Below, one piece after another: positions 1 to 61,962 of a stretch of DNA of 61,962 bases (its first letter is position 1; every line of letters starts with the position of its first letter). A program made the position numbers and the translations under genes. Under the pieces are notes generated by a model. The model did no database searches. It saw nothing but the letters and a program-made list of their open reading frames with translations, and was not told the origin of the DNA. Source of the DNA: Candidatus Accumulibacter phosphatis (lineage in GTDB: Bacteria; Pseudomonadota; Gammaproteobacteria; Burkholderiales; Rhodocyclaceae); the NCBI RefSeq assembly GCF_012939955.1, contig NZ_SPMY01000034.1, positions 1 to 61,962 on the forward strand, given 5' to 3'.

Positions 1-22
1 CTTGCGCGACTTTCGACATTAA
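1..22 (+). repeat. 3' end of a dispersed-repeat copy, cut by the window edge
   Basis: The first 22 bases repeat the right-hand end (hairpin 3 and the terminal TTAA) of the element described at 20-147, with one extra G (CTTTCGACATTAA against CTTTCACATTAA). A further copy therefore lies just outside the window, and two copies sit head to tail here. Confidence 0.7.
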
Positions 23-147
23 CGGTCATGACATGTCGAGATCACCACCGAATCATGAAAGTCATGACCGTTTCCCTCTTCCCCCTGCCCCTTCTCCCGC
101 AAGGGAGAAGGGAGGTTCGTGAGTCGCTTGCGCGACTTTCACATTAA
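20..147 (+). repeat. Dispersed three-hairpin repeat, copy A
   Basis: This is the reference copy. Three self-complementary blocks follow each other. Block 1 has 12-base arms, AACGGTCATGAC (21-32) and GTCATGACCGTT (61-72), around a 28-base middle. Block 2 is CCCTTCTCCC (89-98), a GCAA loop, then GGGAGAAGGG (103-112), a perfect 10-bp stem. Block 3 is AGTCGC-TTGC-GCGACT (122-137) with GTG/CAC outside it. The element ends in TTAA, whose TTA (144-146) is the stop codon of flgK on the other strand. It resembles a REP/MITE-type element; the family is not one I can name. Confidence 0.85.
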
Positions 148-13736: not shown

Positions 13737-13946
13737 GTGAAAGTCGCGTCCGCGACTCACGAATCGCCGTTCTCCGTCGTGCGCGAAAAGGAGCGGAGCG
13801 TGAGATGAGTGAGATGAGTGAGATGAGGAATTCGAGGAACAGGTTTCCTGCCCGTCGGGCGATTCCGGCGGGCAAGCCGGAGTGCACACTGCAAGTGAGG
13901 GAAGTGGTCATGACATTCATCATCAAGGGGAGCTACAAGGCATGAC
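13737..13946 (-). repeat. Expanded and diverged dispersed-repeat copy D
   Basis: In reverse orientation, hairpin 3 (GTGAAAGTCGCG...CGCGACTCAC, 13737-13760) and hairpin 1 (GGTCATGAC at 13907-13915, GCATGACCG at 13938-13946) of the element are recognisable. The hairpin 2 region is replaced by about 140 bases. These include three tandem TGAGATGAG units (13801-13827) and a GC-rich inverted repeat near 13850-13877. The copy separates flhG from fliA and forms the fliA leader. Confidence 0.7.
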
Positions 13947-21598: not shown

Positions 21599-22603
21599 CT
21601 AGAAGCCCAGGCTGCCGAGCAGGTCGTCGACTTGCTGCTGCGTGGCGACGACATCACTGCGCCCTTCGGCGTTGATCACCGGCCCGTTGAGCAGACTCAT
21701 CACCGATTCGGTGCGCCGCTCGCCAGGCATGGTCTCGATCAGCACGCCCATCAGTTGCGCCTCCAGTTCCTGCGCCACGGCAATGGTCTTCTTGATCACC
21801 TGCCCGGTCAGGTCCTGAAAATCCTGCGCCATCATGATCTCGAGCAATTGTGCCTTGGTCGCGCCGGTGTGCTGCGGCAAACCCTGCTTCAGGAAGGCAC
21901 GCGTGTCGTCGGCCAGTTTCTTGAACTCTTCGACCCCCATCTGGTTGGCATACAGCGCATCCCATTTCGCGGCCAGGGCTGCGGAACTCGCTTCGAGCTG
22001 GTCCTGCAGCGGATTGGCGATGTCGGTGGCGTTCAAAACCCGGCAGGCGGCCTTCTCGGTCAAGCTGGCGACATAGTTGAGGCGGTCCCGGGTATCGGGA
22101 ATGGCGGCAGCGGCCGTGCCGAGAAGCTCGTGATAGCCGAGTTCGCCGAGTGTGTCGTGCAACTGCCGGGCCATTTGACCCACGCGTTGAAACACTTTCT
22201 CGTTGCCACTTTCCTGTTCGCCACCTTCGCCGCTCTCCTTAATGTGAAAGTCGCGAATGCGACTCACGAACCTCCCTTCTCCGCCTGCGGGAGAAGGGCC
22301 GGGGGAAGAGGAGGGACGGTCATGACTTTCATCATCCGGGGTATCTCGACTGACATGATCGTTAGCCGAGCTCGCAACGGCCGGCGCTTGCGCAGCGAGC
22401 ACGGCATCGAACAAGGCCTGCAAATCGTCGCTATCGTCCTCCTCGGCTTCCTCGGCTTCGACTTCGCGCAATTGCTGCTGTAGCGACGGTGTGGCTGCTG
22501 CGGCCGGCGCGGCGGCGGTGCCGGTCGCGGTGACGGCTGCGGCAATGCTGTCAAACAGGGCTTCGAGCTCTGTCGAATCACCCGCGCTATCGAAGTCGGT
22601 CAT
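21599..22603 (-). CDS. cheZ: CheY-P phosphatase CheZ with an in-frame repeat insertion
   Basis: Encodes 334 residues from the ATG at 22603, one base after cheY ends. The catalytic region is present (MAQDFQDLTGQVIKKTIA, with the Gln that activates water). The C-terminal CheY-binding peptide is QQQVDDLLGSLGF. Enteric CheZ is about 214 residues; the excess lies in the N-terminal region. Residues about 80-122 are encoded by dispersed-repeat copy B, which is 126 bases long and keeps the frame. An acidic Ala-rich stretch (EVEAEEAEEDDSDDLQ) precedes it. The insertion lies before the four-helix bundle, so activity is probably kept. Confidence 0.92.
   Translation of the reverse strand: MTDFDSAGDSTELEALFDSIAAAVTATGTAAAPAAAATPSLQQQLREVEAEEAEEDDSDDLQALFDAVLAAQAPAVASSANDHVSRDTPDDESHDRPSSSPGPSPAGGEGRFVSRIRDFHIKESGEGGEQESGNEKVFQRVGQMARQLHDTLGELGYHELLGTAAAAIPDTRDRLNYVASLTEKAACRVLNATDIANPLQDQLEASSAALAAKWDALYANQMGVEEFKKLADDTRAFLKQGLPQHTGATKAQLLEIMMAQDFQDLTGQVIKKTIAVAQELEAQLMGVLIETMPGERRTESVMSLLNGPVINAEGRSDVVATQQQVDDLLGSLGF
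22240..22365 (-). repeat. Dispersed-repeat copy B, inside cheZ
   Basis: Read on the - strand it runs from a TAACGATCATGTC-like left end, through GAAAGTCATGACC, a CCCTTCTCCC/GGAGAAGGG stem and GTTCGTGAGTCGC, to CTTTCACATTAA. The length is 126 bases (42 codons). The left arm of hairpin 1 is mutated; hairpins 2 and 3 are nearly intact. It contributes the peptide FVSRIRDFHIK to CheZ. Confidence 0.85.
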
Positions 22604-23028: not shown

Positions 23029-23152
23029 AAAGGTCATGACCTGTCGAGGCGCCGCAGATCATGAAAGTCATGACCGTTTCCCTCTTTCCCGGCCCTTCTC
23101 CCGCGAGGGGAGAAAGGAGATTCGCGAGCCGCTTGCGCGACTTCCATCTTAA
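23029..23152 (+). repeat. Dispersed-repeat copy C, between cheV and cheY
   Basis: GGTCATGAC (23032-23040) pairs with GTCATGACC (23068-23076). CCCTTCTCCC-GCGA-GGGGAGAAAGG follows, then hairpin 3 and CTTAA. The TTA at 23149-23151 is the stop codon of cheV on the - strand. Orientation is the same as copy A. Confidence 0.88.
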
Positions 23153-27170: not shown

Positions 27171-27210
27171 CGACGCCGGCGCTGACCGGCATGTCGCACG
27201 CTCGCGCCGA

Positions 27211-27739: not shown

Positions 27740-27864
27740 TTAATGTGAAAGTCGCGTATGCGACTCACGAAGCTCCCTTCTCCTTGCGGGAGAAGGGTCA
27801 GGGGAAGAGGGGGAACGGTCATGACTTTCATGATCCGGGGTGTCTCGTTTGTCATGACCGTTAG
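27740..27864 (-). repeat. Dispersed-repeat copy E, between fliW and tex
   Basis: Reverse orientation: TTAATGTGAAAGTCGC at 27740-27755, the stem CCCTTCTCC-TTGC-GGGAGAAGGG (27775-27798), GGTCATGAC (27818-27826) and GTCATGACC (27851-27859). The right side abuts the tex promoter region and the left side the fliW leader. It is one of the best-preserved copies. Confidence 0.9.
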
Positions 27865-30379: not shown

Positions 30380-31012
30380 ATGTTCCAGGCAATCATTTTC
30401 GACCTCGACGGCACGCTGATCGACTCACGCGCCGCCATCCTGGACGCTTTCGGCAAGGCTCTGGCGGAAAAAGGCATCGTGCCGCGGATCGCCCTCGCCG
30501 CCGTACGCATCGGCCCGCCGCTTGCCGAGACCTTGCGCGAGCTCAGCGGTAGCGACGACGAGGCCCTCCTCGAATCGCTCGCCGAGCACTTCAAGGCGCA
30601 CTACGACAGCACTGGCTACCGTGCCAGCGAAGTCTTCGCCGACATCCCTGAGCTGCTCACAGCGCTGACGGCAAGCGGCACGCGCTGCTTCCTGGCCACC
30701 AACAAGCGCCTTGCACCGACGCGCCTGATTTTGCAGCACCTGCAGTGGGAGCCGTTCTTCGCCGAGGTGTACGCGCTCGATCGCGAAACGCCGCGCCTGC
30801 CCGACAAGAGCACCATGCTCGCCCGCCTCCTCGCCGAGCAGGCGCTGGACGCCCAGAACTGCATCTATGTCGGCGACACGCCGGAGGACGAAGCCGCGGC
30901 CCGCGCCAACGGCCTGCGTTTTGCGGCCGTGAGCTGGGGCTACGGCGAGTTCCCGAACGCAGGCAGGCTTTACTTCAGTACGCCGCAGGAACTCTGCGCT
31001 TTCCTGCGCTAA
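30380..31012 (+). CDS. HAD-superfamily phosphatase, phosphoglycolate-phosphatase-like
   Basis: Encodes 210 residues. Motif I is IIFDLDGTLIDS (nucleophile Asp and general acid Asp), motif II is the Thr of FLATNK, and motif IV is YVGDTPEDEAAARANG. The cap is helical (type C1). This pattern matches the Gph/PGPase branch of HAD phosphatases, which hydrolyse small phosphomonoesters such as 2-phosphoglycolate; the substrate is not proven. Its TAA stop (31010-31012) is the first three bases of dispersed-repeat copy F. Confidence 0.85.
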   Translation: MFQAIIFDLDGTLIDSRAAILDAFGKALAEKGIVPRIALAAVRIGPPLAETLRELSGSDDEALLESLAEHFKAHYDSTGYRASEVFADIPELLTALTASGTRCFLATNKRLAPTRLILQHLQWEPFFAEVYALDRETPRLPDKSTMLARLLAEQALDAQNCIYVGDTPEDEAAARANGLRFAAVSWGYGEFPNAGRLYFSTPQELCAFLR

Positions 31013-31133
31013 CGGTCATGACTCGTGAAGACACCCCAAATCATGAAAGTCATGACCGTTTCCCCCTTCCCCACCCCTTCTCCCGCAAGGTGAGAAGGGA
31101 GCTTCGTGAGTCGCGCACGCGACTTTCACGGTG
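31010..31133 (+). repeat. Dispersed-repeat copy F, after the HAD phosphatase gene
   Basis: TAACGGTCATGAC (31010-31022) gives the upstream gene its stop codon. GTCATGACCGTT (31049-31060) closes hairpin 1. CCCTTCTCCC-GCAA-GGTGAGAAGGG and GTGAGTCGC...GCGACTTTCAC follow. The end reads GGTGAGG instead of ATTAAG, so the terminal TTAA is lost here. Confidence 0.9.
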
Positions 31134-31194
31134 AGGAAGGGAAGCTACGAGGATCCACGCCTTCGCCCGCACCCGGAACGCTGCAGCGAGACAC

Positions 31195-33848: not shown

Positions 33849-34812
33849 ATGGTTCACCTTCACGACGCGGGCTACAAATACCTGTTCTCGCACGCCGACC
33901 TTGTGCGCGAGCTGCTCGAGGTGTTTGCCCCTCCCGGCCTAAGCGAACTGCTGGACTACGGCACGCTGCGTCCGGAAACCGGCAGCTTCATCACGCCGGC
34001 GATGAAAAAAGCGCGAGGACGACGTGGTCTGGTCGATCGAACTAAAAGGCCAACGCATCTACCTCTACCTGCTGCTCGAATTTCAGGCCTCGATCGACAA
34101 GGGCATGCCGGTGCGGATGATGCAGTACGTGGCGGCGCTCTACGACCATCTGGTGCGCAGCAAGACCGTCGATCCGGCAGACGGCCTGCCGCCGGTCCTG
34201 CCGATCGTGATCTACAACGGCGACGCGCGCTGGAAGCACAGCCCCGAGATCTTCGACCTGATCCAGCCGCACCCGGCGGTGCTGACTGAATTTCAGCCAA
34301 AACTGAAATTCTGGTTGCTCGATGAGGGGCGCTTCAGTGCCGAGTACCTCGAAGGCTTGCAACGAGTAATGGCGGCGATATTCCGGATGGAGCACACTCA
34401 CGACACGGAAGATGCGAAACGGGCAATCCGCTATCTTGGCCAGGCCGTCGCCCAATCGCCATTCAAGCAGACCATAGACCGCGCGGTGATGCAGTGGATG
34501 CAGTACCGTCTCAGTCGGAAAATGCCCGGGCTGCCACTGCCGGAACTCGATGACATGCTGAAAGGAACCGAAATGCTGGAAACGAATATTGATCAATGGA
34601 AAGCCAAGGCGGTAGCCGAAGGCCTGCAGATTGGCAAACTCGAAGGCGAGGCTCGCGCTCTGCAACGCCTCCTTTCCCAGCGCTTTGGCACGATCCCGAT
34701 GGCCATTGGCGAGAGAATAGCAGCGGCCGACCTCGCACAGGTCGAAGCCTGGTTCGATGCAGCCCTTACCGCGCCGGATATGGCCTCCGTGTTCGCCCCA
34801 ACAGCGAACTGA
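33849..34812 (+). CDS. Rpn family recombination-promoting nuclease / putative transposase, frame interrupted by one base
   Basis: About 320 residues after removing one A from the A6 run at 34005-34010. Before it: HDAGYKYLFSHADLVRELLE and GSFITPAMKK. After it: REDDVVWSIELKGQRIYLYL, LLEFQASIDKGMPVRMMQYV, VLPIVIYNGDARWKHS. The E-x-K-like core and EFQ are features of the PD-(D/E)xK Rpn nucleases (formerly PDDEXK transposases). The C-terminus (LLSQRFGTIPMAIGERIAAA) is the DUF4351-type helical tail. In E. coli Rpn proteins promote RecA-independent recombination. It stands between the helicase and the O-antigen genes. Confidence 0.82.
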
Positions 34813-61907: not shown

Positions 61908-61962
61908 TAACGGTCATGACATGTCGAGATACCCCAAATCATGAAAGTGATGACCGTCTCTC
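61908..61962 (+). repeat. Dispersed-repeat copy G, cut by the window end
   Basis: TAACGGTCATGAC (61908-61920), then ATGTCGAGATACCCCAAATC and GAAAGTGATGACCGT match hairpin 1 of the element, with one change in the right arm. Hairpins 2 and 3 would lie beyond the window. Confidence 0.85.

What the first reader, a model, noticed from the sequence alone, without database searches (positions are those of the whole stretch)
20..147. A dispersed element of about 125 bp with three consecutive hairpins
At least seven copies (20-147, 13737-13946, 22240-22365, 23029-23152, 27740-27864, 31010-31133, 61908 onward) share one modular structure. It has 12-base arms AACGGTCATGAC/GTCATGACCGTT, then a 10-bp stem closed by a GNRA-type GCAA loop, then a shorter stem ending in CTTTCACATTAA. 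Both orientations occur. All three stems are kept while the loops vary, which suggests selection on structure (RNA or protein binding) or a non-autonomous transposon. I know of no named family with this layout.
Basis: seen in the sequence. Interest (0 to 1): 0.72.

Follow-up and report, generated by a model that had tools for sequence, protein, structure and literature searches.

The report
Miniature parasite of RNA-guided jumping genes
The repeated 125-base element looks like a tiny mobile DNA without genes of its own that is moved by the RNA-guided (IS110-type) recombinase of larger jumping genes in the same bacteria, because it carries their end signals and sits at the same kind of site.

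Summary
The window is one contig of a Candidatus Accumulibacter genome, which holds at least 150 copies. Relatives show insertion: of 15 isolated sites with an apparent empty counterpart, 13 have a clear junction (11 exact, 2 off by one base), without target duplication, directly after CTAA, TTAA, CTGA or similar. Stems covary between copies.

Instead the element shares both ends with 1.55-kb IS110-family elements of the genus, two of them intact in this genome: left CTAACGGTCAT..ACCCCGGATNATGAAAG, right CTTTCACATTAA or CTTTCACGGTAA. IS110 elements move by a DEDD recombinase and a bridge RNA. Their left noncoding part here holds an unpaired 8-mer equal to their own right end, changing in step with it, and an unpaired CTAA equal to the usual insertion site.

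Best explanation: a MITE-like satellite mobilised in trans by bridge-RNA-guided IS110 recombinases. Movement itself was not shown. Against it, all nine of the 25 genus genomes without any IS110 match still carry the element. I found no report of an IS110-derived MITE in the searches made.

The parts
1..22 (+). 3' end of an element copy in tandem with copy 1 (rest lies beyond the contig end); the TAA at 20-22 is shared
   Evidence: read
23..147 (+). complete short copy 1, from CGG after the TAA to TTAA
13736..13950 (-). long-form copy with extra internal hairpins
   Evidence: left part 13950-13897, right part 13798-13736
22239..22361 (-). complete short copy; left flank CTAA
23031..23153 (+). 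complete short copy; eight other genomes are empty here, G022 is filled
27740..27860 (-). complete short copy; also filled in G022, junction against G001 and G009 unclear
31013..31134 (+). complete short copy ending CACGGTGA; empty in G022 and G001 but junction unclear
61911..61962 (+). left part of a copy cut by the contig end
33939..33942 (+). CTAA, an unoccupied site here; the same place holds a copy in Ca. Accumulibacter meliphilus (L187)

Best explanation
The element is a miniature, non-coding, non-autonomous mobile element of the IS110 kind in Ca. Accumulibacter. It keeps the two termini that an IS110 bridge RNA would recognise as donor: right end CTTTCACAT or CTTTCACGG, the junction TAA, and left end CGGTCAT. 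It has no recombinase gene and none of the IS left-end region with the candidate guides. A full-length IS110 would supply in trans a DEDD recombinase and a bridge RNA, whose donor guide (CACATTAA or CACGGTAA) pairs with the element's right end and whose target guide (ending CTAA) selects the site. A small circle with the junction CACAT-TAA-CGGTCAT would recombine with a genomic CTAA-like site and give CTAA-element-TTAA without target duplication. Since the right end itself ends in TAA, a next copy can land behind it, giving head-to-tail tandems. Shown: shared ends, shared usual site, empty sites, tandem junctions, guide/end agreement in three IS110 lineages, intact IS110 genes in this genome. 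Inferred: circle, guide pairing, action in trans, the exact crossover bases.
For: Ends: of 30 IS110 loci scanned, 9 carry the element-like left end within 2 mismatches of CTAACGGTCATTGC and 8 of these also a right end CACATTAA or CACGGTAA about 1.55 kb on (one at 1.70 kb); the others serve as controls. Left 45 bp against type A IS: 0 of 1000 shuffles reach the score for all four window copies tested; right end against the G001 IS: 1, 0, 0 and 10 of 1000. G011 has six complete type B copies at different sites, all starting CTAACGG and ending CACGGTAA, so these are true termini. The mini-elements end in the same two forms, CACATTAA in 124 and CACGGTAA in 12 of 219 isolated copies. Site: CTAA-like left flanks, no target duplication. 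Guides: last 8 bases of the IS recur at an aligned place in its left noncoding part, 8 of 8 in six and 7 of 8 in one of seven elements from three lineages, 6 of 8 at best across forms; consensus fold leaves exactly that 8-mer and an 8-mer ending CTAA unpaired. Recombinase: both IS110 domains, homologous to IS621. Two intact IS110s in this genome. A 22-bp donor suffices for IS621 when bridge RNA is given in trans (PMC11208160, passages).
Against: Left tetranucleotides of filled and empty sites differ at one base in 9 of 13 resolved sites, and 5 of 13 empty sites read CTGA, not CTAA. Bases of the candidate target guide before CTAA do not match the sites. Only 3 of 56 predicted pairs of the left-end RNA are compensated. 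Right guides were not established. The right-end likeness beyond the last 12 bases is weak against the G000 ISs.
Confidence: 0.75

Rival explanations
1. The mini-element shares ends with IS110s only because both are worked by, or descend from, another unidentified recombinase, or because IS110s took over its ends; the present mobiliser is something else.
For: Nine genomes with elements have no PF01548 match; IS type and element number do not go together in G001 and G022.
Against: The IS's own 8-base guide candidate matches its end in three lineages, G011 copies move with these ends, drafts can miss an IS, and the IS may have been lost.
Confidence: 0.14
2. A REP/REPIN-like or IS200/IS605-derived element moved by a Y1 HUH transposase (a RAYT): single-strand insertion behind a tetranucleotide, needing the hairpins.
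For: Insertion behind a tetranucleotide without duplication, terminal hairpins, covarying stems; one copy lies about 40 bp from the only Y1 gene over the Pfam cut-off in G000.
Against: That RAYT has its own terminal repeats (GGGGCCAGGCTC..GAGCCTGGCCCC) kept in orthologues; an element lies near only 2 of 49 Y1 loci scanned; G021 has a 90% identical RAYT and one weak element match, G012 has 50 elements and no Y1 match; no replichore bias in G010: 24+/22- and 31+/29- in the two halves, 29 of 135 copies in stretches of unclear skew left out.
Confidence: 0.05
3. An element of a rolling-circle IS91-like transposase (Y2 HUH).
For: IS91-like genes in 20 of 25 genus genomes; copies lie near some; tandems fit rolling circle.
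Against: Of 30 IS91-like loci scanned, 3 have a complete or nearly complete copy nearby and 1 a right fragment, none is bounded by a pair of ends; the IS-like end beside one belongs to a separate 203-bp mini-element.
Confidence: 0.02
4. A structured RNA or terminator kept by the host at each site.
For: Strong hairpins, 29 of 35 pairs with changes on both sides; stems change less than loops in orthologous copies.
Against: Empty sites, few gene-stop contexts (15 of 87 isolated left sides, 28 of 547 control sites), and stems mostly broken when they change (39 of 47).
Confidence: 0.04

Closest known systems
IS110-family insertion sequences with bridge RNA (IS621; PMC11208160, PMC11208158, passages seen)
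   Same: Same two termini as the Accumulibacter IS110s, same usual site, no target duplication
   Different: No recombinase gene, no candidate guide region; about 125 or 210 bp instead of 1.55 kb
MITEs, e.g. MITECca01 of IS982 (PMC9769881, passages seen)
   Same: Short, non-coding, high copy, ends of a parent IS
   Different: No terminal inverted repeats and no target duplication, since IS110 elements have none; parent would be RNA-guided
REP / REPIN / GTAG and CGTC repeats with RAYT (PMC3733652, PMC6006769, passages seen)
   Same: Dispersed palindromes at over 100 copies per genome
   Different: 125-210 bp, other end tags, no linked RAYT

Membership tests
MITE-like non-autonomous derivative of an IS | Termini shared with an autonomous element of the same genome | tested here: met
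MITE-like non-autonomous derivative of an IS | Precise presence/absence between relatives | tested here: met
   13 of 15 isolated sites resolved, 11 exact
MITE-like non-autonomous derivative of an IS | Terminal inverted repeats and target duplication (classical MITE) | tested here: not met
   ends CGGTCAT and CACATTAA are not inverted repeats; no duplication. Hence 'MITE-like', as expected of IS110
IS110 family (the presumed parent) | DEDD and Transposase_20 domains, homology to IS621 recombinase | tested here: met
IS110 family (the presumed parent) | Left-end bridge RNA with donor and target guides | tested here: inconclusive
   left guides fit donor end and CTAA; right guides and expression not shown
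IS110 family (the presumed parent) | Circular double-stranded intermediate | not testable with these tools
   needs reads or an experiment
Mobilisation of the mini-element by IS110 in trans | Mini-element moves only with IS110 recombinase and its RNA | not testable with these tools
   genome-level co-occurrence is poor
REP/RAYT system | Y1 transposase linked to the repeats | tested here: not met
IS91 family derivative | Y2 transposase bounded by the same ends | tested here: not met
Rfam RNA family | Match at gathering score | tested here: not met
   0 matches in the window

The most novel reading that the evidence does not exclude
A natural satellite system of bridge-RNA recombinases: mini-donors that keep little more than the donor recognition ends are moved in trans at more than 100 copies per genome to sites defined by about four bases. 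Ends alone make the carrier, so the inside is exchangeable (short form, long form, tandem 81-bp modules), and two donor specificities (CACATTAA, CACGGTAA) are served by two IS110 types in one cell.
Probability: 0.55. Interest if true: 0.72.

Novelty: new variant of a known kind. Interest (0 to 1): 0.6.

Why it matters
Bridge RNAs were described in 2024 as RNAs that choose both donor and target of an IS110 recombinase. A natural non-autonomous donor at high copy number would be evidence that such systems act in trans in nature, would show how little donor sequence is needed, and would give hundreds of natural insertions from which real target choice can be read. It would also explain a main repeat, and a cause of assembly breaks, in Candidatus Accumulibacter, known (recalled) for phosphorus removal in wastewater plants.

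Tried and rejected
RAYT as mobiliser: own terminal repeats, orthologues without elements. Strand bias expected of Y1 elements: none seen in G010, with skew from 20 sampled 20-kb stretches and noisy. IS91: no paired ends. An autonomous parent as a split copy of the mini-element itself: mostly long forms, one locus with N gaps and tandem modules, one with an IS110 inserted, the rest probably chance. Stop-codon parasite: only 15 of 87 isolated left sides are predicted gene stops. Phages and plasmids: no similar sequence; two viral contigs hold the hairpin-1 pattern, none the right-hairpin pattern, and neither contig matches the element profile. Paper searches gave nothing useful.

Dropped before counts: 65 entries had an apparent empty homologue. 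45 are tandem neighbours or self-comparisons and were set aside; the other 20 are 15 sites after merging orthologues, and 2 of these (window 27740 and 31013) have unclear junctions. The counts come from loci fetched because they hold elements or IS110s, so they are not an unbiased sample.

Full report
WHAT IS THERE. The window is contig C37 of an unnamed assembly. The element has a left part of about 50 bp with arms AACGGTCATGAC and GTCATGACCGTT, a middle hairpin with a C+T-rich and a G+A-rich arm, and a right hairpin GTGAGTCGC-loop-GCGACTTTCAC followed by ATTAA. The window holds five complete short copies, one long copy, one copy cut by the right end and the tail of another at the left end. 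The own-genome search gave 150 matches, the cap. Of 41 genomes (this one and 40 relatives) 24 have matches: 23 of 25 of the genus, several with only 1-3 weak ones, and one of another family. Rfam has no match.

IS THE STRUCTURE SELECTED? On 82 model matches from 72 loci given, 94% of cells pair and 29 of 35 pairs have changes on both sides, against a mean of 6.9 in shuffles. The alignment was fitted to the model, which favours this. In 13 comparisons of orthologous copies, some sharing a copy, stems differ at 49 of 779 positions and loops at 156 of 856, but 39 of 47 changed pairs are broken and 8 kept. So the stems seem to matter mainly in source copies, as in a mobile element, though the lower stem rate leaves some room for constraint, and some 'orthologous' copies may be replacements.

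IT MOVES. At window 23031 eight other genomes lack the copy and G022 shares it. In all held sequence 15 isolated sites have an apparent empty counterpart; 13 have a clear junction, 11 with no base gained or lost and 2 off by one. The empty sites read CTGA (5), CTAA (3), TTAA (2), CTAT, TTAC and GTAG (1 each). Filled and empty left tetranucleotides agree in 4 of 13 and differ at one base in 9; most of these compare different species with flank identity from about 70 to 99%. Between close relatives, CTAA|GCGA in the window (33939-33942) is occupied in Ca. A. meliphilus (L187), and CTAA|TGGA occupied in G000 is empty in G022; but CTGA|GGAA, with flanks 94 and 99% identical, keeps CTGA on the left when filled. 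Head-to-tail tandems read CACATTAACGGTCAT and relatives differ in unit number. A logo of 219 isolated left flanks gives C 0.78, T 0.83, A 0.92, A 0.97 and little else, although CTAA is rare: 33 in the window on both strands against 563 CTGA.

WHAT MOVES IT. The first candidate, a RAYT 40 bp from one copy, failed (see rivals). Scanning transposase families in the genus showed that regions upstream of IS110-family genes begin with the element's left end. Type A elements (complete in G000, G001, G019) run from CTAACGGTCATTGCAGTTGC to GGCTTCTTTCACATTAA (GGCTTCTTGCACATTAA in G000). Type B (G000, six complete sites in G011) runs to GTTCTTTCACGGTAA. Flanks outside differ between copies, so these are true termini. 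The mini-elements end in the same two forms, CACATTAA (124) and CACGGTAA (12) of 219. Of 160 stretches with both exact end motifs, 130 are 110-140 bp, 17 are 141-230 bp, one is a 203-bp mini-element with the IS-type left end, 11 are 1.4-1.8 kb (10 with an IS-type left end) and one has another length. Left ends align over about 40 bp (c22240 with the G019 IS), right ends over 38 bp in the best case (c27740 with the G001 IS); right-end likeness to the G000 ISs is weak beyond the last dozen bases, and the middle does not match. This is the anatomy of a derivative with its interior lost and replaced.

BRIDGE RNA. IS110 elements use a left-end RNA whose guides pair with donor and target, and a 22-bp donor works when that RNA is given in trans (PMC11208160, passages; circles and guide layout in PMC11208158, passages). 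In the Accumulibacter IS110s the last 8 bases of the right end recur in the left noncoding part at an aligned place: CACATTAA in type A, CACGGTAA in type B and in a more distant type C (G019). The match is 8 of 8 in six of seven elements and 7 of 8 in the G019 type A; the G010 right end, 1.70 kb from its left end, may belong to a mini-element. Recombinases are 63-69% identical between A and B and 48-55% to C, so guide and end changed together. RNAalifold on six of them leaves unpaired exactly columns 166-173 (this 8-mer) and 109-116 (CAAGCTAA or ATGCCTAA). Only 3 of 56 pairs show compensation, so the fold is weak evidence; the match of both unpaired stretches to end and site is the stronger point. 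Right guides were not established. The recombinase has both IS110 domains and matches IS621. G000 carries one intact A and one intact B side by side.

WHAT SPEAKS AGAINST. G022 is rich in elements but its two IS110s lack the motif ends. G001 has an intact type A and only 2 weak element matches. The mobiliser must have been lost, be missing from drafts, or be something else. I therefore hold the mechanism at 0.75, not higher.

COMPARISON AND NOVELTY. It works like a MITE, but of an IS family without terminal inverted repeats, so the classical criteria are not met and the label is MITE-like satellite. Searches in the held open-access library: Accumulibacter with 'repetitive extragenic palindromic' and with 'miniature inverted-repeat' (the same single paper, listing only); with 'insertion sequence', 'transposase', 'repeats' (3 papers, listing); 'IS110' with 'bridge RNA' (19 papers, 15 listed); 'IS110 family' with 'MITE' (13 listed; passages read in PMC6352166, PMC3718332, PMC11578231); 'IS110', 'nonautonomous', 'bridge RNA', two of three (22, 12 listed); 'IS110', 'non-autonomous', 'miniature' (10 listed; passages in PMC9769881 and PMC3189936); 'Accumulibacter' with 'IS110' (0). 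No passage read describes an IS110-derived MITE; PMC11578231 mentions a 159-bp element whose parent was not stated in the part shown, and the other listed papers were not opened. Subscription papers, preprints and ISfinder were not searched.

Noticed in passing
window 1-147 and 61908-61962: Both ends of the contig lie in element copies, so the repeat probably caused the assembly breaks.
   Followed up: partly
L153:6640-7300; G009:C45:64572-65083: The internal module of the long form (about 81 bp) occurs in tandem between one left and one right end.
   Followed up: no
L397:903-2462 (G022:C57): An IS110 of another type sits inside an element copy, between hairpins 1 and 2.
   Followed up: partly
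L060:4401-5132 (G000:C82): A RAYT with its own terminal repeats (GGGGCCAGGCTC..GAGCCTGGCCCC) kept in orthologues, and a decayed second copy nearby.
   Followed up: partly
L089:4614-4816 (G000:C27): A 203-bp mini-element with the IS-type left end (CATTGC) next to an IS91-like gene, followed in tandem by an ordinary copy.
   Followed up: partly
window about 27178-27200: G022 has about 3.2 kb inserted here relative to the window.
   Followed up: no
G038 (another family of the order): Six weak matches to the element model outside the genus.
   Followed up: no
L060:5504-6235 (G000:C82): An ORF that looks by eye like part of a reverse transcriptase beside the RAYT; not tested.
   Followed up: no
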